NCBI GenBank assembly: GCA_000961645.1
Contig: LADM01000024.1
Location: 1-64,000 of the forward strand
DNA: 64,000 bases
Origin: Gammaproteobacteria bacterium BRH_c0
GTDB lineage: Bacteria; Pseudomonadota; Gammaproteobacteria; Pseudomonadales; Porticoccaceae
Direction of reading: 5' to 3'
In this document: positions 16,132 through 30,780 of the stretch, in pieces
Numbering within the stretch: the stretch's first letter is position 1
How the letters are laid out: each line of letters opens with the position of its first letter
Program-made: the position numbers and the translations under genes
Notes under the pieces: model-generated
Databases searched by the model: none
Seen by the model: only the letters and a program-made list of their open reading frames with translations
What the model was told of the DNA's origin: nothing

Positions 16132-18132
16132 CTACACCACCGTCAAATGCTGTATCAAGCGCTCAACAGCAACCGCTGTGTCAGTCGACAAAACGTCCAA
16201 TCGGGCGTCGCCGAGCAGGTCTTTTGTTACCACACTTTCGCTCAGGGCATCGGACACATACACCCGGCCTCCCACAATGGGCAACAGCTGCTGCACAAAT
16301 GCCTCCAATCTCATATTGCTAGCGCTGGAGGGAATTTCACCTTTTGTAGAGACATTGAAACGATCACCCGCAACAACCAGTGCATCGATCCTGTCGAATG
16401 GCAGTCCACTGCGCAGCAAATCGTCACCATTTACTGCCAGCACGACTGCCTCAACTGCTGTATCGGTCAGCAAGCCCTGCGCTGCGGTAAAGAGATTGAC
16501 TTTGCCCCGCAGCAGGGTCTGCCCCCCAACGGCAACCATCCGATCCGTCGCGTAGCCCACTGTTTTGCCGTTAGCGGTGAAAGTTTTGACCAGCACCCTG
16601 GAAAAATTCTGGGGCGCCCCATCGCCCACCACCATGATCACGGGGATTCTCCCGTTCCCCACCAACAACTTGCTCAAAATGACACCATATAGATGCGCCG
16701 CCGTCGTCTGGCCAATATTGGGCTGGCCATTCACTTCACAAACTGCAGCGCCAGTTTCCTGCCAGGAGCGGGCAATATCCGGAATCAGCAGATCAACACC
16801 GGCAAGATCCAGGCGCAAGATACGCGCTGCGCGCTCCGCCAGCAGGCGGTTATCGGGGTGGACTTGGTCGAGCACCGCCACCGGCACCCCGCCATTGGCG
16901 ACATTGGCCGTGCGCCGCAAGCGCACAAACTGCCCAGGTTTCAGTACGCTGTCTCCGTTCAAGCCCTCCTGTGCCAACAGGTCAATTGCCTCTTCGTTGA
17001 AGTCCAGGCGTTGCAGTGGTGAGTGAGCATCCACACCTCGGTCAGGATTGCGGTTAACCTCCTCCACCAGCTCCAACAGGGTGCGGACACCGTCGCCCGT
17101 AACGCCCCCGGGAACCCGCTCGATGGCCCAGATCAATTCGCCGTGGAGCACAGTCAGCCGGTAATCATTGCCGTAAATATGTTTTTCCACTAACAACTGT
17201 GATGAATACTTGCGGGCACCGGCAAAGGCTTTACATAGCTGCTCCTCATCATGCAGCCCTGCAGCCACTCCCACACCGCCATCCAGGTTTGCGGGCTTGA
17301 CCACAACGGGGTAACCCAGCCGGGCGGCCACAGCAAGGGCCTGCTCTTGAGTACTGACCAGTTGATGGGCGGGCACGGGCAAGCCACCGCGGCGCAATAC
17401 TGCCGCAGCCTGCTGTTTGTTACGGGCGATCTTGGCAGAGATAGACGAAGTGCAATCGGTAAACGAACTATCCAGCCAACGCGAGCGAGCGCCTTGGCCA
17501 AACTGATAAACCCGGGCTGAAATATGGCACACAGGCACCCCCATTTTCTGGGCGGCTTGTAAAAACCTCACGGTGTTGGACCCAGAGGGAACCTCTTTGG
17601 AAATTTTAGCCAGTGCGACCGACAAACCCTCCAACACATCATCACAGGATCCCCCCCCCCAGGCTTTGTTGATTGCGGCCAAAACCCATGTGAAGGCCTG
17701 TGCTGCAGCCCCAGCCTTGCGGTCCAACGTCGCAAACACCAGGACTGCCCGGCGCGAGCCACTGGCATCCAGCCCCACAATGCGGCCATCCTGAGCCAGC
17801 GGCATTCCCGTCTGGCGCTGCACTTGCCCGGTCCAGTACAGCAATCTTTGGAGCAATCCCTTCAGGGGCTCCACATGCCAGACAGGCCTTCGCTGCTGCC
17901 TGTCTGGCAGGGCCAATTCCAGCACACTATCCACACGGGCCAGCAGGGCTGTCGTATCTCGACCTACCAAATCTGCCAGCAAGCCCTTTTCCGATCCCAA
18001 GAGAATAACGGCCCGCAACCCAGGGTAGGACAGGCCCGGGATAAATCCAGGAATCACATCCATCTTGCCTGCCAGGGCAAGCGGCGGCGCGCCAGCGGCT
18101 TGACCCTCAATCACTTCATTCATAAACGTCAA
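16132..18132 (-). CDS. Cyanophycin-synthetase-like ATP-grasp ligase with reduced Mur-ligase domain (copy 1)
   Basis: This 666-residue protein resembles cyanophycin synthetase. Residues 1-220 match the N-terminal region poorly. Residues about 225-490 are a clear ATP-grasp unit: VVVKPANLDGGVGVAAG, GGVTGDGVRTLLELVEEVN, LRRTANVANGG, DQVHPDNRLLAERAA and the metal-binding CEVNGQPNIG. From about residue 496 the Mur-ligase half is shortened to 171 residues and its P-loop position reads VVGDGAPQNF instead of GTNGKTT, so it should not bind ATP there. The same reduction is known in CphA2, which joins beta-aspartyl-arginine dipeptides. The substrate here is unknown, and no cyanophycinase or isoaspartyl dipeptidase is nearby. 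A paralogue lies at 27549-29501. A run of ten G residues occurs near codon 158. Confidence 0.85.
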   Translation of the reverse strand: MTFMNEVIEGQAAGAPPLALAGKMDVIPGFIPGLSYPGLRAVILLGSEKGLLADLVGRDTTALLARVDSVLELALPDRQQRRPVWHVEPLKGLLQRLLYWTGQVQRQTGMPLAQDGRIVGLDASGSRRAVLVFATLDRKAGAAAQAFTWVLAAINKAWGGGSCDDVLEGLSVALAKISKEVPSGSNTVRFLQAAQKMGVPVCHISARVYQFGQGARSRWLDSSFTDCTSSISAKIARNKQQAAAVLRRGGLPVPAHQLVSTQEQALAVAARLGYPVVVKPANLDGGVGVAAGLHDEEQLCKAFAGARKYSSQLLVEKHIYGNDYRLTVLHGELIWAIERVPGGVTGDGVRTLLELVEEVNRNPDRGVDAHSPLQRLDFNEEAIDLLAQEGLNGDSVLKPGQFVRLRRTANVANGGVPVAVLDQVHPDNRLLAERAARILRLDLAGVDLLIPDIARSWQETGAAVCEVNGQPNIGQTTAAHLYGVILSKLLVGNGRIPVIMVVGDGAPQNFSRVLVKTFTANGKTVGYATDRMVAVGGQTLLRGKVNLFTAAQGLLTDTAVEAVVLAVNGDDLLRSGLPFDRIDALVVAGDRFNVSTKGEIPSSASNMRLEAFVQQLLPIVGGRVYVSDALSESVVTKDLLGDARLDVLSTDTAVAVERLIQHLTVV
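17651..17660. repeat. C10 homopolymer inside the ATP-grasp ligase gene
   Basis: Ten consecutive C on the plus strand (G10 on the coding strand) encode the Trp-Gly-Gly-Gly-Ser part of the protein. The gene is in frame at this length. A one-base slip would truncate the ligase before its ATP-grasp domain, so this is a candidate phase-variation site. Confidence 0.85.
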
Positions 18133-18171
18133 CCGCTACTTTGCCAGTTCCGAAAGGGGATGTACTTCCCA

Positions 18172-18936
18172 CTATTTTTCCACTACCACCTTTTCTGCTA
18201 CCACCGTCGTCAATTCCCATTGCATGCCGATACCGCCATCGGGCAATGTCTCTACACCCAGCTCTTGGTGAATGGCAATGGCCGTCTCGGCGATGCTGGC
18301 GGTGCGCAAATCAAACAGGTCATGACAAAATCGGGCCATGTCCTGCTCTTTGTCAAACTCCCAGCAAAACGATATCGCCTCGTTGGAAATGACTGTCCAT
18401 CCGGTGTCGCGCAACTCATCCAGGGTGATGGCTGACAAAAAAACGCCCTCATGGCCAGTACTGTTATGGTCACCGACAAAGCCATCGAGAAATTTCGCAG
18501 GGGCTGAATTCACTGCCACATCAGAGACCACAAGCCGACCACCGGGTTTGACTACCCGCAACAGCTCGGCAAACAGTGGCCGTTTGTCTTCCAGGTGATG
18601 AATACCGGCAACACTCATGGCCACATCGATACTGTTATCCGTCCAGGGCAACGGCAACAGTGGAACCGAGACAGGATCGGCGCCCCTGTCGACGCTCTGG
18701 CCGACATGGGCGTAAAAACTGCCGCAAGGTTCATGGCCCAACCATTCACACCCAGCGGGTAGATACGCCGCCAGATAGCCGCCACCGGCGGGAACATCAG
18801 CTACCTTCATGCCAGACAACAAGCCGGCCCGCTCGATCACCTGGCCAAACTCCTTCGCCCGCGCAGCCGGAAACATCCGCATAGCGCGGTCGTAGGCAGT
18901 GCCGCGCACATCAAACAACTGGTCATAACGTTGCAT
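18172..18936 (-). CDS. Class I SAM-dependent methyltransferase
   Basis: A 254-residue protein with a Rossmann-type methyltransferase core. Motif I is degenerate but recognisable (VADVPAGGGYLAAYL near residue 44), followed by MSVAGIHHLEDKRPLFAELLRVVKPGGRLVVSDV, the typical motif II/III region of UbiE/Methyltransf_11 enzymes. The ATG at 18936 (MQRYDQLF) is preferred because AGGA lies about eight bases upstream; a longer frame begins at 18969. It ends 39 bp before the ATP-grasp ligase and begins 79 bp after a glycosyltransferase gene, all leftward. The acceptor (sugar, amino acid or lipid) cannot be read from the sequence; the context suggests a surface molecule or the ligase product. Confidence 0.85.
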   Translation of the reverse strand: MQRYDQLFDVRGTAYDRAMRMFPAARAKEFGQVIERAGLLSGMKVADVPAGGGYLAAYLPAGCEWLGHEPCGSFYAHVGQSVDRGADPVSVPLLPLPWTDNSIDVAMSVAGIHHLEDKRPLFAELLRVVKPGGRLVVSDVAVNSAPAKFLDGFVGDHNSTGHEGVFLSAITLDELRDTGWTVISNEAISFCWEFDKEQDMARFCHDLFDLRTASIAETAIAIHQELGVETLPDGGIGMQWELTTVVAEKVVVEK

Positions 18937-19015
18937 TATTTGTCCTTTGGTGAATAACCGTAAGCCCATATCTGGCCGGGCTTTTATTTGATCAGGCCGA
19001 CAAGGTTAATCTGGG

Positions 19016-20269
19016 TCACCGGGCCAGCAGCTCATCAATCAGCCGGAGATGTTGCGGCAAACAGCGGGTTTTCAGGTCGTACTTCTCAACAATTGTATCC
19101 CTGGCGCGCACTCCTGCCTGGCGCCGCACCTGCGGCTGATCCAGCAGAGCGTCAGCCTTTTCAATCAATTCATCGCTGTTGTGGTAATCAAACAAAAAGC
19201 CGTTTACGCCGTCCTCGATCACCTCGACCACAGGCGTCGTGTCGGAAGCCAGCACCGTCGTCTGGCAGGCCATAGCTTCAAGCATCGACCAAGAAAGCAC
19301 AAAAGGCGCAGTGAAATAGATATGCAGGGAGCTGATGCGAAACAGGTTCAAAAGCGTCGCGTAGGGGACTTTTCCGACAAATACGATCCGCCGCAGGTCC
19401 AACTCGCCCTCGACCTCTGCCAGGAGAACTTCCTTCCAACTTTTGCCGGAGTAATGGGGTCTGCCATAACTCACATCGTCACCACCCACGATAAGGGTGA
19501 TGGCCTTGGGTCGACGCTTTTGAAGTCTTGGCAAGGCTCGCATGAAAAGGTGGAATCCCCTATAGGGTTCGAGGTTACGCACCGAATAGGTGATAACCTC
19601 ATCAGCCTCCGATAAAGTCAGTGGGGGTGATCCCTGCACATTGATGGTGACAGTGACGCCAGACACTGGCGCCACCAGATCTGTGTCAACGCCATCATGG
19701 ATAACGTCGATTTTTGGCTTGAATTCGTCAGGAAAGGTGCTCCACTGCCAGTGGGTGGGACAGACACCCTGGTCGGCCATTTCCAAAGACAGCAGGTTAG
19801 TAGCATTCTTGGAGCGCAAGCTCATCCTGCCGCCAATATCGATTGGAAGTTCCGGATCAAAGTCCACCATGGGTCCGTCCGGGCGGTGGTAAAATTCAAA
19901 ATAGCTGAGAAACTTTGCCCGAGGAAACACTTCTTTGAGATAAAGTGAATCCCCCCAGCCTGGATGAGAACAAATGATGTCAGGGGCAAGTCCATTTTTG
20001 CGCCGGCGTAAGGCCAAACTTGCCACAGCTTGGGCTCGAGCAAGTTGGGATTCGAACTCGCTCGCCAACCCTCTGCCACCAGCCTTGAATTCCTCTGGCA
20101 TTTCATACCCCAAAAGTTGAACACCTTGCTGGGGAATATAAGCGAGTTGACGAGTTACATTGGGCTTTTCCCCAATAGCATAGGCCTCCCAATCGGGATG
20201 AGCGGCAAAATGGCGGGCTATATAGCGATATTGGCCAGGAAAGTTCTGGTGAGCGAAAAGAATTTGCAT
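19016..20269 (-). CDS. GT4-type glycosyltransferase
   Basis: A 417-residue GT-B fold protein. The N-terminal Rossmann half begins LFAHQNFPGQYRYIARHFA, a start shared with a subgroup of GT4 enzymes, and includes DIICSHPGWGDSLYLKEVFP. The C-terminal half has VRNLEPYRGFHLFMRALP, the nucleotide-sugar binding stretch SWSMLEAMACQTTVLASDTTPVVEVIEDGVNG, and a final helix. Such enzymes use UDP- or GDP-sugars and keep the anomeric configuration. It is the first gene of the leftward block, divergent from rfbB with 170 bp between them. No clear ribosome site precedes the ATG. The product could decorate the surface polysaccharide or the secreted protein. Confidence 0.88.
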   Translation of the reverse strand: MQILFAHQNFPGQYRYIARHFAAHPDWEAYAIGEKPNVTRQLAYIPQQGVQLLGYEMPEEFKAGGRGLASEFESQLARAQAVASLALRRRKNGLAPDIICSHPGWGDSLYLKEVFPRAKFLSYFEFYHRPDGPMVDFDPELPIDIGGRMSLRSKNATNLLSLEMADQGVCPTHWQWSTFPDEFKPKIDVIHDGVDTDLVAPVSGVTVTINVQGSPPLTLSEADEVITYSVRNLEPYRGFHLFMRALPRLQKRRPKAITLIVGGDDVSYGRPHYSGKSWKEVLLAEVEGELDLRRIVFVGKVPYATLLNLFRISSLHIYFTAPFVLSWSMLEAMACQTTVLASDTTPVVEVIEDGVNGFLFDYHNSDELIEKADALLDQPQVRRQAGVRARDTIVEKYDLKTRCLPQHLRLIDELLAR

Positions 20270-20439
20270 GATATAGAAGTAACAACCAAGTTAATTTTGC
20301 CTTCCCGTGGCCACCTCCCCGCAAGGGTGTAAAATGGCAGTGTCGGGCACGGCCCACAGTTCCAAACCTTAACATAGATTCACACCGCAGCTTTCATATG
20401 CAATGAACGCTGCACACAAATTACCAAGACCGGAAAACA
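20270..20439. promoter_or_regulatory. Divergent intergenic region between the leftward GT4 operon and rfbBDAC
   Basis: The 170-bp gap must hold the promoters of both operons. I see no convincing -35/-10 pair. Before rfbB only a weak GGAAAA ribosome site is visible. Confidence 0.4.
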
Positions 20440-21488
<1,049 letters not shown>

Positions 21489-21492
<4 letters not shown>

Positions 21493-22385
21493 AAATCCTG
21501 CTGTTCGGCAAGCAGGGTCAGGTGGGGTATGAATTGCAGCGCGCCCTCCGCCCTCTCGGGCACATCGTCGCCCTTGATCGCAACGGCCACGACAGTCTGT
21601 GTGGCGATCTCGCCGACACACAGGGTATCGCCAGCACCATCGCCCGGGTGCGCCCCGATGTGATCGTCAATGCCGCCGCCCACACCGCCGTGGACCGGGC
21701 CGAAAGCGAAGCGGATCTCGCCTTCGCCATCAATGCCACTGCACCCGACGTTATGGCGCAAGAGGCGGCAAAACTCGGCAGTTTGCTGATTCACTATTCC
21801 ACTGACTATATTTTTGACGGCAGCGGGGCCAGACCCTGGCGGGAAACCGACACCCCCGCCCCACTCAACACCTATGGCCGCAGCAAGCTGGCGGGGGAAC
21901 AGGCCATCCAGGCGAGCGGCTGCCAGCACCTGATATTGCGCACCAGTTGGGTATACGGGAAACACGGCCACAATTTTGTCAAAACCGTGCTGCGCCTGGC
22001 GCAGGAAAGACAAAGCCTCGCCATGGTGGCGGACCAGATTGGCGCCCCTACAGGCGCCAGGCTGATTGCCGATGTCACCGCCAAAGCCCTGGCCACAGCC
22101 ATTCACCAGCGACAATCGGGCATTTACCATCTCGCCGCCAGCGGCGAAACCAGCTGGCACGGCTATGCCACTTTTATCGTCGAACAGGCCCGCGCCAACG
22201 GCCTGCAGCTGGCCACAGAGCGCATCGAACCGGTGGCTAGCAGTGCGTTTCCGACCCCGGCGCAAAGGCCCGCCAACTCGCGCCTCGACACCGGCAAATT
22301 GCAGCGCCAGTTTGCCCTCCACCTGCCACCCTGGCAGGAGGGAGTGTCACAACTGATCAAGGAACTGACAGGAATCTCCGCATGA
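21489..22385 (+). CDS. rfbD: dTDP-4-dehydrorhamnose reductase
   Basis: A 298-residue SDR enzyme. It begins [20 protein letters not shown], contains [14 protein letters not shown], the catalytic YSTDYIFDG and [10 protein letters not shown] segments, and RTSWVYG. It reduces dTDP-4-keto-rhamnose to dTDP-L-rhamnose using NAD(P)H, the last step. The ATG at 21489 overlaps the rfbB stop in ATGA and fits the family start; the longer in-frame extension lies inside rfbB and is rejected. It overlaps rfbA by four bases. Confidence 0.96.
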
Positions 22386-23290
22386 CTGCCGACAAGGCCA
22401 CTCACCCCAAAAAGCGCAAGGGCATCATCCTCGCCGGTGGTTCCGGCACCCGCTTGCACCCCATTACGCTGGGGGTTTCCAAGCAGCTGCTGCCCATCTA
22501 CGACAAGCCGATGATTTACTACCCCCTGTCGGTGCTGATGCTGGCGGAAATCCGCGATATCCTGATTATCAGCACACCGGAGGATCTGCCCAACTTCCGC
22601 AAGCTGCTCGGCGATGGCAGCCAGTTTGGCATCCACCTCAGCTATGCCGAACAACCCTCACCGGATGGCCTCGCCCAGGCCTTTATCATCGGCGAGGACT
22701 TTCTGGCCGACAGCCCCAGCTGCCTGATTCTCGGCGACAATATCTTTCACGGTCACGGTTTTACCGGCAAGCTGCAGGCCGCCAACGCACGCCAGCACGG
22801 CGCCACGGTATTCGGCTATCACGTGGCAGACCCGGAGCGCTTCGGTGTGGTGGAATTCGACAACGACGGGCGCGCCATCAGCATCGAGGAAAAACCTGCC
22901 AAACCAAAATCGGCCTATGCGGTGACCGGCCTGTATTTTTATGATGAGCGGGTTGTCGATATTGCAAAAAACATCAGGCCCTCAGCGCGGGGTGAGCTGG
23001 AAATCACCGACATCAATCGCATCTACCTCGACGACAACAGCCTCAACGTGGAAATGCTTGGCCGCGGTTTTGCCTGGCTGGACACTGGCACCCACGACAG
23101 CTTGCTGGATGCGGGTCAATTTGTCGAAACTGTCGAAAAACGCCAGGGCTTCAAAATTGCCTGCCTCGAGGAGATCGCCTTTCACAACCACTGGATCGAC
23201 GCCGACCAGTTACGAGCCAAGGCGGTAACCCTCAACAAATCCGGATATGGTCAGTATCTGCTGAATGTAATCAAGGACAATAATCGATGA
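22382..23290 (+). CDS. rfbA: Glucose-1-phosphate thymidylyltransferase
   Basis: A 302-residue nucleotidyltransferase of the usual RmlA length. The signature [37 protein letters not shown] region carries the pyrophosphorylase G-G-x-G-T-R-L motif and the catalytic Lys of [17 protein letters not shown] and [20 protein letters not shown] are also diagnostic. It makes dTDP-glucose, the first step of the pathway, from dTTP and glucose-1-phosphate. There are about a dozen extra residues at the N-terminus ([14 protein letters not shown]). It overlaps both neighbours by four bases, implying coupled translation. Confidence 0.97.
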
Positions 23291-23850
23291 AAGTCACGCC
23301 AACCGCCATCCCCGACGTGATTATTATTGAACCTGCTGTGTTCGAAGATGACAGGGGCTGGTTTATGGAAAGTTTCAATCAACAAAAGTTTCATGAGGCT
23401 CTGCAACAGCTGGGCCTGCCGATTCCACGGCCATTTGTCCAAGACAACCATTCATGCTCAAAAAAAGGAGTTTTGCGAGGATTTCATTACCAATTGCCAC
23501 CTTACGCTCAGGGTAAGCTGGTACGGGTTGTCAAAGGCGCGGCGTTTGATGTGGCGGTGGATATTCGCAGCACTTCAGCTACATTCGCCAAGCATGTGGC
23601 TGTTGAACTGTCTGCAGAGAATCACCGCATGTTGTGGATTCCTGAAGGCTTCGCCCACGGGTTTGTAGCTCTCGAAGATGACACCCACTTTCTGTATAAA
23701 GCAACCGATTTTTATAATCAGAAAAATGAGCAGAGTATACGATGGGATGATCCAGTCATTAGCATTTGCTGGCCGTTAGCGGACTCACTGATCATCAGCG
23801 CCAAGGACATTTCTGCAAAACTACTGACTGCCCCTGATCGAATACCTTAG
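23287..23850 (+). CDS. rfbC: dTDP-4-dehydrorhamnose 3,5-epimerase
   Basis: A 187-residue cupin-fold epimerase. Diagnostic segments are [34 protein letters not shown] (active-site His), [18 protein letters not shown] and [21 protein letters not shown]. It epimerises dTDP-4-keto-6-deoxyglucose at C3 and C5. Base composition falls within this gene: it is visibly richer in A+T than rfbB, rfbD and rfbA, marking the start of the AT-rich island. About 180 bp without a gene follow it. I see no terminator there. Confidence 0.95.
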
Positions 23851-24029
23851 GAATAGAATAGAGTAATCAACTGGGCATAAAAGATTAGAGCCCACAGCCA
23901 GAAATCTCCTTAGCCAGCGGCAACGTCTTACCCTTTCAAGCCCACAAAATGATGGGAACAAAGGTTTTATGATAAAATTCATCACACGATAAAATAATTC
24001 ACAATCAACATATGGAGTAAAGAGGCTAC

Positions 24030-24290
24030 ATGGACACTCAAAAAATTCGTCAGGTAATCATTGACAAGCTATCTGAAATGAAAATAAACCCCAAGATTAG
24101 CCTGGATGCAGACAACATAGGTGATGTCACATTTGAAAATCTCGGAATCGACAGCCTGGAAACAACAGAATTTGCACTTTTTTTGGAAGAAGAACTAGGT
24201 ATTATCATTGAAACAGAAGATTTCCCAATGAACGCCAGCATCGATGAGCTTGCAGAGCACATAGTGGACCTAATAAAGCATCGCCCTTAA
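24030..24290 (+). CDS. Acyl carrier protein (orphan)
   Basis: An 86-residue acidic protein with the carrier-protein fold and the phosphopantetheine attachment site GIDSLETTEF (Ser at about residue 47), preceded by NLGIDSL. AGAGG stands upstream of the ATG. Carrier proteins hold acyl or aminoacyl groups as thioesters. No ketosynthase, acyltransferase, adenylation or condensation gene is present in the window, so its partner enzymes are unknown. It is the only rightward gene of the AT-rich island, and its 3' end overlaps the 3' end of the convergent hydrolase gene by 21 bases, an unusual tail-to-tail overlap. It is probably a specialised carrier rather than the housekeeping AcpP. Confidence 0.9.
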   Translation: MDTQKIRQVIIDKLSEMKINPKISLDADNIGDVTFENLGIDSLETTEFALFLEEELGIIIETEDFPMNASIDELAEHIVDLIKHRP

Positions 24291-25211
24291 TTCGTTTTCA
24301 AGGCGTCCAGAAGTGAATAGTGGGGAGACCACTGCATGACCGCAACCCTTTATTTCTTCAACAGTAAAATTTCTCACTGACTCAAGGTTTTTAGCATGAA
24401 GCTTGTCTTTTAGTGAATTTTCCCCATAAAAAAGTTTCCATTCACACTGACCATCAAAATCAGATAGAAACACTTTTAAATCAAGGAGTGAATTCTGAGA
24501 GATCTTACTCCTAACTTCATCAGTCATGAATCTCGGCTGAGGCATACAGGAGTTCGGAGAAAAATCACTATGAGCAGCCAACGCAAGACAGCCACTTGCA
24601 CCCAATTTAGTTGCTGCCAGTAATGAGGCATACCCACCGGAAGAAAACCCTGTCGTGACAATTTTCTTGTATTTATTTGCTTTAATAAATTGAGATAGCT
24701 TTGCCATCGACTCGTCGAAGTCTTTAGCCAATCCGGGAATTCCGTTAAGATAATTAAACACGGTCGGATCTTTCATTATTATTACAGATACACCAATTTT
24801 CCTAATCAGCGCCAAAAAAGCCAAGTTTGAAATATAGAAATTATTGAACATGGTTGCAAAAACCACCAATACAACCTCAGGCAATTTTTTCCCTCGCTCA
24901 TAAATTGGCTTATACAAATCATAGGTCATTTCAATCAGTTTACTATCCGCAAACATATCCTGAAAACGATCCATAGTAACGATCGCATTCCATTCATCAT
25001 GGCAGCGTTTCAAGAACACATGGACGTCTTTCCGATCAGTCCGTAAGGACAAATGATTATGAAGAGGTAAAAACTCAGATAAACCCTGAGTAGACAGCTC
25101 AGACAAAAGATAAATCAACTGTGTAGTAGTTAGAGTGTTGGCGCTTAATACTAAGCGCTTTAAATTAATAACCTGATCAACACTATGCTGCCTTGGATCA
25201 CGAAAGAGCAT
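24270..25211 (-). CDS. Alpha/beta hydrolase-like protein
   Basis: A 313-residue protein with the alpha/beta hydrolase nucleophile elbow GFSSGGYASLL (Ser at about residue 173) preceded by a strand (KKIVTT). A likely acid is in FLSDFDGQCEWKLFYGENS and a likely histidine in GCGHAVVSPLF near the C-terminus. The N-terminal 90 residues are unrelated to the core and are rich in Leu. Possible roles are esterase, thioesterase acting on the adjacent acyl carrier protein, or acyltransferase; the sequence does not decide. The start codon overlaps the sulfotransferase stop by one base (TAATG), so the two are translationally coupled. The composition is AT-rich. Confidence 0.72.
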   Translation of the reverse strand: MLFRDPRQHSVDQVINLKRLVLSANTLTTTQLIYLLSELSTQGLSEFLPLHNHLSLRTDRKDVHVFLKRCHDEWNAIVTMDRFQDMFADSKLIEMTYDLYKPIYERGKKLPEVVLVVFATMFNNFYISNLAFLALIRKIGVSVIIMKDPTVFNYLNGIPGLAKDFDESMAKLSQFIKANKYKKIVTTGFSSGGYASLLAATKLGASGCLALAAHSDFSPNSCMPQPRFMTDEVRSKISQNSLLDLKVFLSDFDGQCEWKLFYGENSLKDKLHAKNLESVRNFTVEEIKGCGHAVVSPLFTSGRLENELRAMLY

Positions 25212-26080
25212 TACTGAAAACCCTGAAGCTCGTTAACAAACCACAAATCGCGAATAAAGTCCTTGGTGTAAATTTGTGATAATTGTTGATACTCACCGTC
25301 AAAAAAATTCCTCAACCCTCTACGGTATTCATCTGAGACATCCATACCCGGCCCCAGATTTGACTGATTAATTTTATTGGATATCCAGTCGATCTTAACA
25401 GGAACATCTAGAAACTGGCACAACGCCTCAAACTCTTCGGATACAAACATCTTCTCATAGAAAGAGATATACAGGCGGTCGTCAGAAAACACTGCCTGTA
25501 ATTTATTTATACAATCACTATAACCAGAGGTCGCCACAACCCCACTATTGCAGAGCAGTTCATCAATAATCTCACACAAGGGGCTTGATTTATCAAAGTT
25601 TTTGCCAGACATAATCCCAAGTTTTTTTGTCATTCTTCCAAGTGAAATCATTCTAGAAACAGGGTCTCTCATGAAAAAAACAACTTTAACGACAACACCT
25701 CTCTTGGCAAAAGAGTCGTTAATATATTCAAATATTTCTGCTGGCAACAGCATATAGGTCGGAGTAATATCACCTGTTATGGTAAAATCATTCGTTAACA
25801 ACGAATCAAAATAGTCAAAATAGTTTTCGCAATTTTCATAGAAGGAATGCAGCAATAATTCGCGTTCGTGTTTCTTTCTTTGAAACCCGTTCATTGGAAA
25901 CTCTGAAAGATTAAATTTCGGTTTAAAAAAATCACAGGATTTGACATGGATAACATCAAATATGTGATATTCCTTCTTTATTCCGAAATTAGAAAAATCA
26001 TATGAATTTAAAAAGTTATAAAGCCATGTGGTACCAGTTTTCGGTGCACCAACGCCTAATATAAATGTACGCTGAGACAT
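25211..26080 (-). CDS. Sulfotransferase-family protein
   Basis: A 289-residue protein with the PAPS-binding signature of cytosolic-type sulfotransferases at the start: the 5'-phosphosulfate loop GVGAPKTGTTWLYNFL near residue 10 and a 3'-phosphate motif FFMRDPVSRMIS near residue 130. These enzymes transfer sulfate from PAPS to hydroxyl or amino groups of sugars, phenols, peptides or lipids. The acceptor is not indicated. It is the first gene of a two-gene unit with the hydrolase and is preceded by 235 bp without a gene, where its promoter probably lies. Composition is strongly AT-rich compared with the rfb operon, suggesting separate origin. Confidence 0.87.
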   Translation of the reverse strand: MSQRTFILGVGAPKTGTTWLYNFLNSYDFSNFGIKKEYHIFDVIHVKSCDFFKPKFNLSEFPMNGFQRKKHERELLLHSFYENCENYFDYFDSLLTNDFTITGDITPTYMLLPAEIFEYINDSFAKRGVVVKVVFFMRDPVSRMISLGRMTKKLGIMSGKNFDKSSPLCEIIDELLCNSGVVATSGYSDCINKLQAVFSDDRLYISFYEKMFVSEEFEALCQFLDVPVKIDWISNKINQSNLGPGMDVSDEYRRGLRNFFDGEYQQLSQIYTKDFIRDLWFVNELQGFQ

Positions 26081-26315
26081 TATTTGTTCCGCCGCCTGCC
26101 TGAATGTGTCATGGAAAAATTAGGCCGTTAAGAAAAGGGATTTAAAATGTAACAATTTTACCCAGAATACACCAAACAAACTGCTAGATTTTAGTCAACG
26201 CAACACCGTATTACTTGATAAAAACGACTTAGAACCGACAACCACTTCATTAAAAGATGCTTGCACTCTGTTTACACTCCAAGGCATCATTTAGCACAAC
26301 CAGATTCAAAAACAC
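26081..26315. other. AT-rich gap upstream of the sulfotransferase gene
   Basis: I see no gene and no clear hairpin terminator here. The region probably contains the leftward promoter for the sulfotransferase-hydrolase pair, but no convincing promoter hexamers were recognised. Confidence 0.4.
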
Positions 26316-27542
26316 TTATCCAGAACAATTCAAGCCCTGCCAGATATCCACTGCAGTCATTAGTCCACGTAGCTTGTTCTTTACCTCAAGCAACTCCTTT
26401 TCAGCTGATGATTCGGCAATGACGCCGACCCCTCCCTGCGTGTACAGAGTTTCGTCACAACTGAGAAGAGCACGAATATTTAAATAGGCTCCGACAGTTT
26501 TAGCGTTGGGGGCAACCCGACCAACAACCCCGCCATAGTAACGATTGGGCTCAGGATTATCCTGCATTCTTTCAGCTAATTCTGCCGGATAAGAGGTAAG
26601 CGGAGGAAACGAATCTTTCAAAAGACTAACCCAGTTTAAATCGGAACGCAGATCACCTGAAAGTTTGGAGTGCAAATGTCTCACCATGCCCATTTCAAGA
26701 ACATCCTGAAACTGGTCGATAGACAAAGAATTTTTTTCGACCAGGCTCTCCATCCGAGCCTGATATCGATTAAACGCCATCATGTGCTCTCGTATTTCCT
26801 TTGGATCTGATTTCAGCTCTTCAATCCAGCGCCTGTCCTTTTCAGGATCGGGCGAAATTCCGCGCGTAGAAGCAACCACATCAAACACTAAGCGCCTATC
26901 TTCAAGCTCAAACACATTCTCAGGGCTGCAACCGACAGACTGAATATTCTCACTGATTTTAATATAATGACTACAAGCTGAAGTTGGCTCACGACCAGCA
27001 AAAATCTCAAAAAACTTGAAAAGATCACCACGTGCTTTTTTCTGATAACCTCTCGAGACAATTAATTTACCCTCATATTGGGCAAGAAGGCTGATCCCAT
27101 CATGCAACCTCTTCACAAACTGATCATCTGACTGTGAGTCCCAGTGCGATGATGAAACAGATTCGGGATGAATAAATTTCTTGCTCTCTCGACCGGAGTA
27201 GACAAGTTCAACTTCATGCTTTGGCTGCAAACATAAAAAAAGTGGTAAACGATCATCCTGAAAATTTCTGATGTAATCCTGGCTCAACAGGAACACTGCG
27301 GGGCATTCAGGATCGATAAGATTGGCTAGCTGCTCAACTGGATTTCCTGCAAAATCCTTACATTCAACCTGATCACCACTGAAAACTTTTAACCTATTTC
27401 GATATATCTCTATCCGTTTTTCACAGCCAAATCCAATATATGAGGTTTTTTTGCGAGGAAAATGGAATAAGTAATTTGGATCACCAAATAGATGAGACAT
27501 TCGAACACATGAATCAACAGCAAGTTCCAACGCTTGCGACAT
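26316..27542 (-). CDS. Chorismate-binding enzyme, salicylate/isochorismate-synthase-like
   Basis: A 408-residue member of the MenF/EntC/PabB/TrpE superfamily. GKLIVSR keeps the lysine typical of isochorismate and salicylate synthases; CSPENVFEL holds the SPE glutamate; ASTRGISPDPEKD and DPKEIREHMMAFN give the Mg-binding glutamate; VRHLHSKLSG and QGGVGVIAESSAEKELLE hold the last metal site. Overall it reads most like MbtI/Irp9-type salicylate synthases. The segment that reads FPS.TASGIPKA in those enzymes is shortened to FPPLTSYPAELA here, without the glycine. It lies six bases after the ATP-grasp ligase stop, with GGGAG as ribosome site, so the two are coupled. The likely product is isochorismate or salicylate, supplying an aromatic group; this is inference. 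Confidence 0.83.
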   Translation of the reverse strand: MSQALELAVDSCVRMSHLFGDPNYLFHFPRKKTSYIGFGCEKRIEIYRNRLKVFSGDQVECKDFAGNPVEQLANLIDPECPAVFLLSQDYIRNFQDDRLPLFLCLQPKHEVELVYSGRESKKFIHPESVSSSHWDSQSDDQFVKRLHDGISLLAQYEGKLIVSRGYQKKARGDLFKFFEIFAGREPTSACSHYIKISENIQSVGCSPENVFELEDRRLVFDVVASTRGISPDPEKDRRWIEELKSDPKEIREHMMAFNRYQARMESLVEKNSLSIDQFQDVLEMGMVRHLHSKLSGDLRSDLNWVSLLKDSFPPLTSYPAELAERMQDNPEPNRYYGGVVGRVAPNAKTVGAYLNIRALLSCDETLYTQGGVGVIAESSAEKELLEVKNKLRGLMTAVDIWQGLNCSG

Positions 27543-27548
27543 AACAAT

Positions 27549-29501
27549 TTAACTCCCGAATTTTTTCAGGTACGTTGCCACAGCACTTACAACCTTTGAA
27601 CTATCTGCTGGCAATTGATGGCCGGCACTTATTGAAATACCTCGGCCTGATAATTTAGGGTTTGACTGACTATTACATAAAAGAGCTAGTCCTGAACAAT
27701 GAGGCACTAATAAAGGAGATATTTTTCGCAGAAAATGGCCATTATCAGCGTTTAATTCGCCTATGGTTATGAGCACATCAAACCGATCAAATGGCAGGCC
27801 TTCTTCAAGTACTTTAGCGTCACTAATACAGATAATCCCGGCACCAACAACTTTATTCATAAGCAAAAACATTGTCGAAGAGAAAATGCTTCCATCGTTG
27901 ACTGACACAGGAGTTCCGCTAACGATAAGACCTTCAGAGCGACTAACACCGATCTCTGACCATTCAGAATCCAGCACGGCCGTAAGCTCTGCTATAAAAT
28001 GTTCAGGAATTTCCTCTCCAACGACAACAATAAGCGGAATGCGTCCACCACGCCTGACTCTCGCTTCCAGTATTTTTCCATACAGGTGGGTTTGAGAAGC
28101 GGCAACCAACTGTGGCTGGGCATTAATTTCAATGATTCCACCGCCCACATCCCGCCAGGATCGTGCAATGTCAGGAATAATCAAATCGATGCCTGCCAGA
28201 TCCAGCCCTAGTACAGATGCCGCATTTACAGCGAGTAACCGATTATCGGGATGAACTTGATCCATAACTCCCTCTGGTGTACCTCCAGATGAAATATTGG
28301 CAGCCCTGCGCAAACAAACGAAGACTCCCGAGTCAAGAACACTGTTTCGATCAAACTTCTGCTCCACCAGCAAATCTTCGGCCTCCCTGTTTATAGTCAG
28401 CGGCCTCAAACTGGCCTGAGCATCATGACCCCTGCGCGGATCTTCGTTAGCTATAGCAATTAATTCTTCAACTGTATGCTTACCATCTCCAGTAATCCCA
28501 GCAGGTTTTCTGGTCAGAGCCCACTCTAAATTGCCATCAATTACCTGCAGTCGATAGTCTCTACCGTGTAGATGTTTTTGGACTAGAATAAATTTAGAAA
28601 TTTTCCGTGCTTCTTCCCATGCGATAGTCACCTGTTCTGCGTTCGTTAATCCTGACGCCACCCCTAGCCCGCCATCCTTATTTGCAGGTTTTATAACTAC
28701 GGGATAGCCAAGCTGTTCTGAGAGCTGAACAGCATCTTCGGCAGATTTGGCTACCCGATCATCCGGCACAGGCAAGCCCGCGAGACGCAGGAGCATACCG
28801 CATTGAAACTTATTCTTAGCCACAGTAACACCCATATCAGGTGTCAGTTGGGTTATAGAGCTGTTTAAACGGCCCTGATTTTTGCCCCACCCGATTTGGT
28901 AGTAGGGAGATATTAATGGCATCCATGGAATTTTCAGCTCATTCGCAGCAGACAGAAATCGAAGAGTGTTCGTCTGACCACTCTGAAGCGGCTTGAGATT
29001 TACCAGAAACCTTTGATAACTACTCTCAATTTCCTTTTTTACATCTTCCTCCAATTCAGCCTTGGAGAATGCTAGCAAAACTCGCAGCGACCATAAAAAT
29101 GTCTGGAACGATATTTGCGAATAGGGTGGATGATAGGGTACAGAGGCAACAATTTTCACCTCTTTCTCATTGCTTCGAACAGACAGAATCCTTCCGAACT
29201 CAAATATCGGGGCCCCCGCTGAACGCATCACTTTGCTAGAAAAATCCAGCGCCTTGGTAATAAATTTGGCGCCAGGTGAATCAATTTGCCGTTGTTCTGA
29301 AACCTGACCCGAACAGTCAATATTAAACATCTCGGCAATGCGGTTATCCAATTTTTGCCAATCTGAACTTTCCCACCCTGAAAATTCTTGCGCCGGTAGC
29401 GTGAACATGATCAGTATGCTGGGTGCCTGGCAGCCATAACCCATACCTTTGAGGACTTGGAGTTTTTTTACATTAAAACCAGGAGGTAACTTTTTGTTCA
29501 T
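27549..29501 (-). CDS. Cyanophycin-synthetase-like ATP-grasp ligase with reduced Mur-ligase domain (copy 2)
   Basis: A 650-residue paralogue of the protein at 16132-18132, matching it along the whole ATP-grasp region: VVIKPANKDGGLGVASG, AGITGDGKHTVEELIAIAN, LRRAANISSGG, DQVHPDNRLLAVNAA and IEINAQPQLV. As in copy 1 the Mur-ligase half is cut to about 163 residues, and the P-loop position reads VVGEEIPEHF, so only one ATP site should be active. The gene is much richer in A+T than copy 1, which suggests independent acquisition rather than recent duplication. It is coupled to the downstream salicylate-synthase-like gene and preceded by a GT1 glycosyltransferase. The ligated substrates are unknown; amino acid or aryl-amino acid amide bonds are possible. 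Confidence 0.85.
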   Translation of the reverse strand: MNKKLPPGFNVKKLQVLKGMGYGCQAPSILIMFTLPAQEFSGWESSDWQKLDNRIAEMFNIDCSGQVSEQRQIDSPGAKFITKALDFSSKVMRSAGAPIFEFGRILSVRSNEKEVKIVASVPYHPPYSQISFQTFLWSLRVLLAFSKAELEEDVKKEIESSYQRFLVNLKPLQSGQTNTLRFLSAANELKIPWMPLISPYYQIGWGKNQGRLNSSITQLTPDMGVTVAKNKFQCGMLLRLAGLPVPDDRVAKSAEDAVQLSEQLGYPVVIKPANKDGGLGVASGLTNAEQVTIAWEEARKISKFILVQKHLHGRDYRLQVIDGNLEWALTRKPAGITGDGKHTVEELIAIANEDPRRGHDAQASLRPLTINREAEDLLVEQKFDRNSVLDSGVFVCLRRAANISSGGTPEGVMDQVHPDNRLLAVNAASVLGLDLAGIDLIIPDIARSWRDVGGGIIEINAQPQLVAASQTHLYGKILEARVRRGGRIPLIVVVGEEIPEHFIAELTAVLDSEWSEIGVSRSEGLIVSGTPVSVNDGSIFSSTMFLLMNKVVGAGIICISDAKVLEEGLPFDRFDVLITIGELNADNGHFLRKISPLLVPHCSGLALLCNSQSNPKLSGRGISISAGHQLPADSSKVVSAVATYLKKFGS

Positions 29502-29583: not shown

Positions 29584-30780
29584 TTAGTGCAAAGACTGTT
29601 CCAGTCGCTCATATAACGCTCTAACCCGTTCAACAAGCTTCGCACCATTCATTTCGGGAGATGACATTCGAAAGGGCTTGTGCCTGTTATGAATTGCCAA
29701 CCTAATGGCCTCCATAACCACTTTATCTACTGAATCTTCAGCAGGCGACAAAATCACTCCGCCGCCGCTTTCAACAACTCGCTGGGCGTAAAACACCTGC
29801 TCTTGCTGCCTTGGAATGAGAATCTGCGTAATACCATATAGATAGAACTGTGATGCTGTCTGGTGATTACCACCTGTTATTGCTAAATCAGCTTCCTTAG
29901 CCAACTCCTGGATATCCAGCGGCTGATCAACAAAGCGAATTGCAGGAAATTTTTGCTTTACGTCCTCAGGCATATCCCTGCTATACACCAATACTGCGCA
30001 GTTATTAGCTACGAGAACCCTGAATATTTTCTCACATTGTGGCGATGCTGACAGATAGGCAAATACTTTAATTCCTTTCTTTTCTGGCCAATCCTGTTTC
30101 ATACCAGATAAAGAAGGTGGCAAACCCAAATAATCAACCCCCGCTCTAACCTTATAGTGATCTAGCTCAGGAATCGTCGCGAACAGCTTTTCATCTACCT
30201 GATCATAGAGATCCTGGATTCTTGGCATCGTTGGCAAGCCTTTGCTCATCAGGTGCTGATTCAGCAACGCCAGCAATGCACTGTCGCTTTCACCAGCATA
30301 AACTTCTGCATTAGTTACTTTTTCGGCTCCCGGAAAAAATCCAAAATATTTTTCGTCTGTTGGGGGAATAAGAAACCCAGAGCCCACCACCCATTTAACC
30401 CAGTGATTTCCATAGCTAGCCAGCAGTGCTGTTGGGGCATGATCGTATACCACCACATCTGGCTGCACTGCCTTGAAAATACTTTCCCAGCCACTATCGA
30501 GCAATCTCACACGCTGGCTGTTGACATAATATCCGGTGATCATCTGGGAAAATGAGCACAGCGGCTTTGCATGTTGTTTTTTAATGATCTTGAGTCGGGG
30601 TGTAAGAAATATTTGCAAGGGATAGCCCGGGAATAATATCGGGATATTGTCCAGCTCGACCGCGGCCAACGACACGCTGTGCCCCCTGGACAGTGCTTCA
30701 TCGATAAAAGGTTTAAGATTTGACAAATGCCCGAGATTCGATCCCATTTCCCAAACACATAACAAATTCGCCACTGACAA
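29584..30780 (-). CDS. GT1/MGT-like glycosyltransferase
   Basis: A 398-residue GT-B protein resembling UDP-glucuronosyl/macrolide glycosyltransferases. The N-terminal domain begins LLCVWEMGSNLGHLSNLKPF, with the GxxGH pattern of this family. The C-terminal domain has IRFVDQPLDIQELAKEADLAITGGNHQTASQFYLYGITQILIPRQQEQVFYAQRV, equivalent to the donor-binding ...GG...E.L..G.P....P...EQ... motif. Members commonly glycosylate small lipophilic or aromatic acceptors, which fits the neighbouring salicylate-synthase-like gene, but the acceptor is not known. It lies 42 bp after the P-loop gene and 82 bp before the ATP-grasp ligase, all leftward. Confidence 0.85.
   Translation of the reverse strand: MSVANLLCVWEMGSNLGHLSNLKPFIDEALSRGHSVSLAAVELDNIPILFPGYPLQIFLTPRLKIIKKQHAKPLCSFSQMITGYYVNSQRVRLLDSGWESIFKAVQPDVVVYDHAPTALLASYGNHWVKWVVGSGFLIPPTDEKYFGFFPGAEKVTNAEVYAGESDSALLALLNQHLMSKGLPTMPRIQDLYDQVDEKLFATIPELDHYKVRAGVDYLGLPPSLSGMKQDWPEKKGIKVFAYLSASPQCEKIFRVLVANNCAVLVYSRDMPEDVKQKFPAIRFVDQPLDIQELAKEADLAITGGNHQTASQFYLYGITQILIPRQQEQVFYAQRVVESGGGVILSPAEDSVDKVVMEAIRLAIHNRHKPFRMSSPEMNGAKLVERVRALYERLEQSLH

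What the first reader, a model, noticed from the sequence alone, without database searches (positions are those of the whole stretch)
16132..29501. Both cyanophycin-synthetase-like proteins have lost the Mur-ligase P-loop
Seen in sequence: the GTNGKT-type motif is replaced by VVGDGAPQNF in copy 1 and VVGEEIPEHF in copy 2, and the C-terminal half is about 165-171 residues instead of about 380. The ATP-grasp motifs are intact. Known: cyanobacterial CphA2 has a similar reduction and ligates beta-Asp-Arg dipeptides. Here both copies are reduced, so the chemistry is probably a single type of amide bond.
Basis: partly seen in the sequence, partly recalled or inferred. Interest (0 to 1): 0.6.

Follow-up and report, generated by a model that had tools for sequence, protein, structure and literature searches.

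The report
Two single-site cyanophycin-synthetase-like ligases
Two enzymes shaped like the one that makes the storage polymer cyanophycin have kept only one of their two bond-making sites; they belong to a scattered, apparently unstudied family that more likely builds other amide-linked molecules than cyanophycin.

Summary
Both proteins (666 and 650 aa, 35% identical) keep the CphA fold but have lost the Mur-ligase site: GTNGKT is replaced and no residues remain for a lid domain. The ATP-grasp site keeps eight tested residues, yet P-loop His267 is Gly and Asp-binding Arg458 is gone. Likeness to CphA2 is architectural: its sequence signatures are absent, and the careful tree joins CphA2 to CphA1, though an AU test on a quicker tree does not exclude a CphA2/short clade. 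The genome (94% complete) shows no CphA1 and no cyanophycinase. The copies belong to a family found in Pseudomonadota and Chlorobiota whose commonest partner is a class-I methyltransferase (adjacent in 18 of 33 core loci outside the window; copy 1 has one). Copy 2 instead lies 6 bp from a salicylate-synthase-like enzyme, near an acyl carrier protein and an RTX/DUF4214 protein. The copies have different partners, so two different amide bonds are as likely as one. No substrate is known. In a sister group, ligases sit with small repeat-bearing peptides and HExxH peptide hydroxylases, which looks like an undescribed RiPP system.

The parts
16132..18132 (-). copy 1: single-site CphA-like ATP-grasp ligase, 666 aa (TTG start; an ATG lies three codons on)
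27549..29501 (-). copy 2: single-site CphA-like ATP-grasp ligase, 650 aa
18172..18969 (-). class-I SAM methyltransferase, 39 bp upstream of copy 1; homologues directly beside the ligase in other genomes
   Evidence: Methyltransf_11 E=2.6e-11
26316..27542 (-). chorismate-binding enzyme nearest salicylate synthases, 6 bp downstream of copy 2
   Evidence: PF00425 E=8.9e-35; TIGR03494 E=1.6e-30 but far below its cut-off; Irp9 and MbtI best PDB matches, a TrpE fourth
25211..26080 (-). sulfotransferase-like protein
   Evidence: PF00685 E=9e-8, above cut-off
24270..25211 (-). protein with a weak alpha/beta-hydrolase match; distant match in the Gallionellaceae ligase locus L057
   Evidence: Lipase_3 E=0.017, below cut-off; phmmer E=3e-4 to L057 16468-17430
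24030..24290 (+). acyl/peptidyl carrier protein, 86 aa
   Evidence: PP-binding E=5e-9
29584..30780 (-). GT-B-like glycosyltransferase; 41% identical homologue in the locus of a group II ligase in a genome of the same genus (L171)
19016..20269 (-). glycosyltransferase family 4; 67% identical homologue in the same locus L171
   Evidence: PF12000 E=3.2e-52
31641..36275 (-). 1544-aa DUF4214 protein with weak RTX-repeat match, possible type I secretion substrate; a homologue lies beside a CphA-like ligase in the same genus (L170)
   Evidence: PF13946 E=7.3e-12; HemolysinCabind E=2.9e-4, below cut-off; 40% over 804 aa
10412..14842 (-). type I secretion ABC protein, HlyD-like and TolC-like genes downstream of copy 1
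   Evidence: read from the translations, no profile run on the window genes; BLAST homologues of the ABC and HlyD genes beside a CphA-like ligase in L180
15696..15908 (-). DUF6447 small protein (70 aa from the ATG) between copy 1 and the secretion genes
   Evidence: PF20045 E=9.6e-9

Best explanation
Each protein is a single-site amide ligase of the CphA fold. The ATP-grasp (G) domain binds ATP and Mg2+, phosphorylates a carboxylate held by the invariant Arg (TeCphA1 R309) and lets an amine attack the acyl phosphate. The Mur domain is a catalytically dead remnant that may serve oligomerisation. They do not make cyanophycin. Copy 1 works with the adjacent methyltransferase; copy 2 works with a chorismate-derived aryl acid (salicylate or isochorismate type) and perhaps a carrier-protein-bound intermediate, giving amide-linked aryl/acyl-amino-acid units in a tailoring cluster around a type-I-secreted RTX/DUF4214 protein and its glycan. 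Shown by sequence and model: one intact nucleotide site, loss of the second, family membership, neighbouring genes. Inferred: the reaction order, the substrates, the role of the remnant, the link to the secreted protein.
For: Residue count: eight tested G-site positions kept in 35 of 35, Mur-site Lys in 0 of 35. Models superpose on TeCphA1 7wae_C: copy 1 Z 30.5, 617 residues, rmsd 4.7; copy 2 Z 30.7, 604 residues, rmsd 5.5. Own genome: only these two CphA-like genes at high score, no cyanophycinase. N-domain primer-cutting motif absent in 35 of 35, present in 36 of 47 proteins with GTNGK[TS]. A methyltransferase adjoins the ligase in 18 of 33 core loci outside the window; the two main methyltransferase profiles hit 0 of 31 full-length CphA loci. 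The chorismate enzyme has Lys in its IVSR stretch as Irp9 has, where the TrpE shown has Gln; a homologue occurs in one other ligase cluster, L039. ACP in the window; ACP, AMP-binding enzyme, halogenase-like and 2OG oxygenase genes near a ligase and an RTX protein in the same genus. A group II ligase fused to an AMP-binding domain.
Against: No substrate was measured. No AMP-binding enzyme was seen among the window ORFs that I read or scanned. 15 of 33 core loci show no adjacent methyltransferase, and copy 2 has none. The chorismate enzyme recurs in only 1 of 33 other core loci within the flanks held. Partner genes vary between loci (P450 in six), so one common product is not implied. His267, needed in CphA1, is missing, so the acyl-phosphate step must be served differently or the reaction may differ. 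The same-genus ligase beside the RTX protein (L170) belongs to another branch.
Confidence: 0.5

Rival explanations
1. The ligases act on ribosomally made chains: they activate the C-terminal (or a side-chain) carboxylate of a peptide or of the secreted RTX/DUF4214 protein and attach an amine or a small unit.
For: In a sister group of the same family the ligase sits beside small repeat-bearing peptides and HExxH peptide hydroxylases in five loci with profile-confirmed HExxH genes (L043, L044, L094, L176, L189) and probably in L178. The relative that pairs with copy 2 is fused to TPR repeats (L072). Ligase and RTX protein are close neighbours in the window and in L170.
Against: No such peptide occurs in the window by motif or profile and no HExxH gene in this genome. 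Copy 1 and copy 2 are not in that sister group.
Confidence: 0.2
2. They are CphA2-type enzymes that re-polymerise beta-Asp-Arg dipeptides.
For: Same size, same loss of the Mur site, good model fit (7ta5: Z 25.7 and 25.5). The AU test on the quick tree does not reject CphA2 plus the short family as one clade (p 0.609). Arg458 is replaced in CphA2 too.
Against: CphA2 P-loop GHKG and NAAPG..MHLKPAIG loop absent (against 46, 48, 49). The careful tree puts CphA1 and CphA2 together (100/96), apart from the short family. No CphA1 and no cyanophycinase found in the genome.
Confidence: 0.05
3. One or both make a homopolymer or oligomer of one amino acid by repeated single-site ligation.
For: CphA2 polymerises with a single active site (PMC10206079, passages), RimK too (recalled); the primer-carboxylate Arg R309 is invariant.
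Against: Methyltransferase partners fit capping or tailoring better than polymerisation (an inference); I did not search for polymer-degrading partners other than cyanophycinase.
Confidence: 0.15
4. They are catalytically dead scaffolds.
For: His267 and the Mur site are lost.
Against: K220, K261, R309, R323, N394, D431, E450 and N452 invariant in 35 of 35.
Confidence: 0.03

Closest known systems
CphA1, cyanophycin synthetase (PDB 7wae, 7lgm, 7lgn; residue roles from PMC9427784, sections 7, 8 and 10 read)
   Same: N, G and M-core fold; the eight ATP-grasp positions counted
   Different: second (Mur) ATP site and lid lost, P-loop His267 and Asp-binding Arg458 lost, N-domain CxnHxxEH lost, no cyanophycinase in the genome
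CphA2, cyanobacterial beta-Asp-Arg polymerase (PDB 7ta5, 8fxh)
   Same: about 630-650 aa, reduced M domain without P-loop, one ATP site, His267 and Arg458 positions also changed
   Different: P-loop GHKG against DGG; NAAPG..MHLKPAIG loop absent; separate clade in the careful tree (AU test on the quick tree not significant)
RimK / LysX / D-Ala-D-Ala-ligase type ATP-grasp enzymes
   Same: single ATP-grasp site; structural match over the G domain
   Different: the listed matches cover the G domain only, not the N domain and M-core remnant

Membership tests
CphA1 | Mur-type P-loop GTNGKT with Lys499/Thr500 and Glu558 | tested here: not met
   Lys499 0 of 35, Thr500 0 of 35 (2 Ser), Glu558 1 of 35, not in the window copies
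CphA1 | ATP-grasp phosphate, Mg and carboxylate ligands K220, K261, D431, E450, R309, R323 | tested here: met
   35 of 35
CphA1 | P-loop His267 and Asp-binding Arg458 | tested here: not met
   His267 is Gly in both copies, Arg458 is Gly in copy 1 and Val in copy 2; 0 of 35
CphA1 | NCBIfam cyanophycin synthetase cut-offs (PRK14016, TIGR02068) | tested here: not met
   copy 1 345.8 of 877 and 315.8 of 850 bits; copy 2 323.8 and 282.4
CphA1 | cyanophycinase in the genome (frequent companion) | tested here: not met
   none in G000; over cut-off in 0 of 7 genomes with short ligases against 11 of 16 with full-length CphA
CphA2 | shortened M domain without P-loop on a CphA fold | tested here: met
CphA2 | CphA2 sequence signatures (GHKG P-loop, NAAPG..MHLKPAIG), as seen in two PDB chains | tested here: not met
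CphA2 | common descent with CphA2 to the exclusion of CphA1 | tested here: inconclusive
   careful tree against it; AU on the quick tree p 0.609 does not reject it; the two PDB CphA2 rows only 48% filled
CphA2 | polymerises beta-Asp-Arg | not testable with these tools
   needs protein
RiPP-associated sister group (group II ligases) | repeat-bearing LLGFK-type peptide and HExxH hydroxylase beside the ligase | tested here: not met
   no motif or profile hit in the window, no HExxH gene in G000

The most novel reading that the evidence does not exclude
The CphA fold has given rise to a whole family of single-site ligases, outside both cyanophycin synthetases, that tailor ribosomal peptides and secreted proteins: one branch with LLGFK-leader, AKIGK-core precursor peptides and HExxH hydroxylases (a new RiPP class), and another, with the window's two copies, that attaches a methylated or aryl unit to a type-I-secreted RTX/DUF4214 surface protein or its glycan.
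Probability: 0.2. Interest if true: 0.85.

Novelty: new variant of a known kind. Interest (0 to 1): 0.62.

Why it matters
Proteins whose best curated match is 'cyanophycin synthetase' can lack the equipment to make cyanophycin. They point to a little-explored set of ATP-grasp ligases with methyltransferase, aryl-acid, carrier-protein and possibly RiPP partners, which gives testable enzyme-substrate pairs and warns against counting cyanophycin producers by similarity alone.

Tried and rejected
Cyanophycin as product: rejected (no CphA1 or cyanophycinase found, Arg-adding site lost). Recent duplication: the careful tree pairs the copies with different rows, but the AU test on the quick tree does not reject sister copies (p 0.671; that constrained tree even had the higher likelihood), so this stays open. 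RiPP precursor for the window copies: motif over the window plus 188 loci and profile over 14,896 small ORFs; none in the window. Both the motif and the profile were made from the peptides they find; only the peptide in L184/L189 was a new find of the motif. L190 holds an HExxH gene with a lysine/glycine-rich small ORF but no ligase, and the profile does not hit that ORF. The plasmid search listed mostly ordinary CphA and other ATP-grasp hits. Two attempts to print CphA2 alignments failed because CphA1 filled the five slots.

Limits of the counts. Gene calling was by amino-acid composition and misplaces some genes in GC-rich loci. The core set leaves out L041-L044, L071 (split gene), L092, L094, L108 and L109. 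The methyltransferase profiles were built from the short-ligase loci themselves and several loci are close relatives (L055/L059, L063/L065/L068), so the Fisher values (3.5e-7 for 18 of 33 against 0 of 31; 1.0e-6 for the 17 found by the profiles) are not independent tests; L057 counts by another methyltransferase (PF00891), which was not sought in the 31 controls; L051 lacks its upstream flank. One search listed only the four commonest residues per position; one search is the full recount. N452 is my own addition to the residues named in the paper. Genome G230, one of the seven 'short' genomes, also has an atypical full-length CphA-like (L034), and G348 has a cyanophycinase match below cut-off. 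The 34 genomes were chosen partly because they hold ligases. Before the first tree six truncated and 20 redundant full-length rows were dropped; five long-branch or odd rows (L108, L038, L034, L043, L094) were left out of the careful tree. The later tree with near relatives is a quick one with flagged long branches.

Literature: the searches listed no paper on these short ligases with methyltransferases or HExxH/RiPP genes, as far as titles, abstract starts and term counts show (searches had more hits than were listed). The library holds open-licence papers only; the CphA2 papers were not read and PMC9974463 was not held.
Full report
What was checked. The two ORFs are 16132-18132(-) and 27549-29501(-), 666 and 650 aa, 35% identical to each other. 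Against PDB sequences both match CphA1 best (7lgn E=4.5e-72 for copy 1, 7lgm E=2.2e-67 for copy 2); CphA2 chains 7ta5 and 8fxh follow. The stretch aligned with the Mur P-loop reads VVGDGAPQNF and VVGEEIPEHF. NCBIfam's cyanophycin synthetase models hit but reach under 40% of their cut-offs.

Sites. TeCphA1 residue roles come from PMC9427784 (sections 7, 8 and 10 read). I transferred them through the HMMER alignment of copy 1 with chain 7wac and counted them in a 96-row alignment, comparing 35 short core proteins with 46 that contain GTNGKT. K220, K261, R309, R323, N394, D431, E450 and, added by me, N452 are kept in 35 of 35. Of the Mur site, K499 is kept in 0 of 35, T500 in 0 (Ser in 2), E558 in 1 (L064), and no row has a GxxGK[ST] after the G domain. 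His267, which sits between gamma-phosphate and the carboxylate in CphA1, is never His in the short set; it is Gly in 26 of 35 and in both window copies. Arg458, which binds the Asp alpha-carboxylate, is never Arg. Ser396 is kept in 10 of 35 (copy 2, not copy 1); Glu215 in none. So 'ATP-grasp motifs are intact' is right for nucleotide and metal binding and wrong for some substrate and catalysis residues. The N-domain primer-cutting motif CxnHxxEH (PMC9262961, section 9 and passages) occurs in 0 of 35 short proteins and 36 of 47 with GTNGK[TS].

Structure. AlphaFold2 with 36 and 32 family sequences gave mean pLDDT 88.2 for both copies (pTM 0.88 and 0.86). For copy 1 Foldseek ranks CphA1 first (7wae_A, E=5e-46, TM 0.74 on the query) and CphA2 from rank 10. 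VIA gives Z 30.5 and 30.7 to 7wae_C, aligned up to its residues 707 and 708, and Z 25.7 and 25.5 to CphA2 7ta5. A strand-loop-helix lies where the P-loop should be, without its lysine, and the chain ends before a lid domain. Ligand binding was not modelled.

Kinship. In the class search 23 of 369 genomes, the window's included, hold a CphA-like match at 1e-40, most of them full-length CphA. Among 38 near genomes 7, the window's included, hold a match at 1e-50, with five in one genome. In the careful tree (67 rows) the 29 CphA1 and CphA2 rows form one group with 100/96 support and the short family lies outside; copy 1 pairs with L047 (94/88) and copy 2 with L072 (95/80). Against this: on the quick tree the AU test does not reject the short family plus CphA2 as one clade (p 0.609), nor the two copies as sisters (p 0.671). 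The two PDB CphA2 rows were only 48% filled. CphA2's own signatures, seen in PDB alignments (GHKG P-loop; NAAPG..MHLKPAIG), are absent from the window proteins.

Not cyanophycin. The genome (93.7% complete) holds only these two CphA-like genes at high score. Cyanophycinase TIGR02069 is over cut-off in 0 of 7 genomes with short ligases and in 11 of 16 with full-length CphA; G348 among the seven has a match below cut-off, and G230 also holds an atypical full-length protein, L034. The five full-length genomes without cyanophycinase show that absence alone proves nothing.

Partners. Copy 1 is preceded by a class-I methyltransferase. In 33 core loci outside the window a methyltransferase is the immediate neighbour in 18 (Pfam checks of some of them); 17 belong to two profiles, one (L057) is an O-methyltransferase. 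These two profiles hit none of the 31 full-length CphA loci. In six loci a P450 gene is nearby (three of them checked). Copy 2 is 6 bp from a chorismate-binding enzyme whose best solved relatives are salicylate synthases, with a TrpE close behind; a homologue occurs in L039, together with a homologue of the copy 1 methyltransferase, a P450, a TauD-type oxygenase and a protein with an AMP-binding match just below cut-off. That the lysine in its IVSR stretch marks water-using chorismate enzymes is recalled, not tested. The window also has a carrier protein that a first ORF list missed, a sulfotransferase, glycosyltransferases and a 1544-aa DUF4214 protein; copy 1 is followed by type I secretion genes (by reading). 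In the same genus, L170 shows a CphA-like ligase of another branch, an RTX protein 40% identical over 804 aa, a 2OG oxygenase, a halogenase-like flavoprotein, an ACP and an AMP-binding enzyme. Secretion ABC and HlyD homologues also lie near ligases in L055, L059, L180 and L183.

Mechanism. With one ATP-grasp site, the invariant R309 for the activated carboxylate and a remodelled pocket for the incoming amine, the plain reading is an acyl-phosphate amide ligase. What is joined is not shown. The neighbours favour an aryl or acyl acid and an amino-acid-like amine, with methylation in the copy 1 pathway; I give this 0.5.

A lead outside the window. In a sister group (99% support in the quick tree) the ligase gene adjoins a small ORF and a TIGR04267 HExxH peptide hydroxylase: L043, L044 and L094, L176, L189 (there the ligase is cut by the contig end). 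L044 and L189 were assigned to this group by their sequence, not placed in that tree. The small ORFs share a [KR]L[LFY]GF[KANE][ILV] stretch and (G/S)AK(I/V)GK-like units, often repeated; L094 has other repeats. Over the window and 188 loci (2.1 Mb, with overlaps) the motif hit no other ORF of 150 aa or less apart from L178's two; the motif was written from these peptides, and L184/L189 was its one new find. Of five HExxH genes in 34 chosen genomes, four have such a peptide and a ligase beside them. L178 couples two such peptides, two AMP-binding-type genes (one checked by Pfam) and what reads like the start of an HExxH gene with a ligase whose Mur P-loop is intact (GTNGKS), so a bifunctional ancestor is plausible. 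HExxH enzymes are known RiPP hydroxylases (PMC12636437, abstract and passages), and that paper's main text has no 'ATP-grasp' or 'cyanophycin'; my searches listed no paper with the combination.

Noticed in passing
L043 8975-9106(-); L044 11261-11596(+); L176 8462-8734(+); L189 10631-10816(-); L178 6090-6670(+): Small peptides with an LLGFK-type leader and AKIGK-like units between a CphA-like ligase and an HExxH peptide hydroxylase gene (in L178 the HExxH gene is cut and has no profile hit): possibly an undescribed RiPP class.
   Followed up: partly
L094 11674-11898(+): Sulfitobacter: ligase, peptide with two APYGA(L/M)KFLP(L/I)ATKVG repeats, HExxH gene; the repeat differs from the LLGFK type.
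   Followed up: partly
L092 8018-11335(+); L179 1509-4829(+); L182 7258-10566(-): AMP-binding domain fused to a group II CphA-like ligase (L092 by Pfam, the other two by length and reading); L092 and L179 share a glycosyltransferase-like gene upstream (55% identical).
   Followed up: partly
L072 3816-6296(+): TPR repeats fused to the relative that pairs with copy 2, next to other TPR proteins.
   Followed up: partly
L109: A CphA2-like protein (KPLAGHKGQGV P-loop, grouped with CphA2) in a Candidatus Coatesbacteria MAG, outside cyanobacteria.
   Followed up: partly
L108 6145-13011(+): Stella sp. ATCC 35155 has three CphA-like ORFs in a row, besides a further one in L066.
   Followed up: no
L045 and L046: One Chlorobiaceae MAG has two copies, one with an adjacent methyltransferase and one without, as in the window.
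   Followed up: no
L071 10058-11608(+): The ligase gene appears as two ORFs (356 and 150 aa).
   Followed up: no
window 20440-23850(+): Genes that read like dTDP-rhamnose biosynthesis lie between the two ligase operons, on the opposite strand (no profile run).
   Followed up: no
L050 5736-6200(+), L054 6773-7237(+), L058 11821-12312(+): A conserved 154-163 aa protein follows the ligase; the L050 and L058 copies have no Pfam or NCBIfam match.
   Followed up: partly
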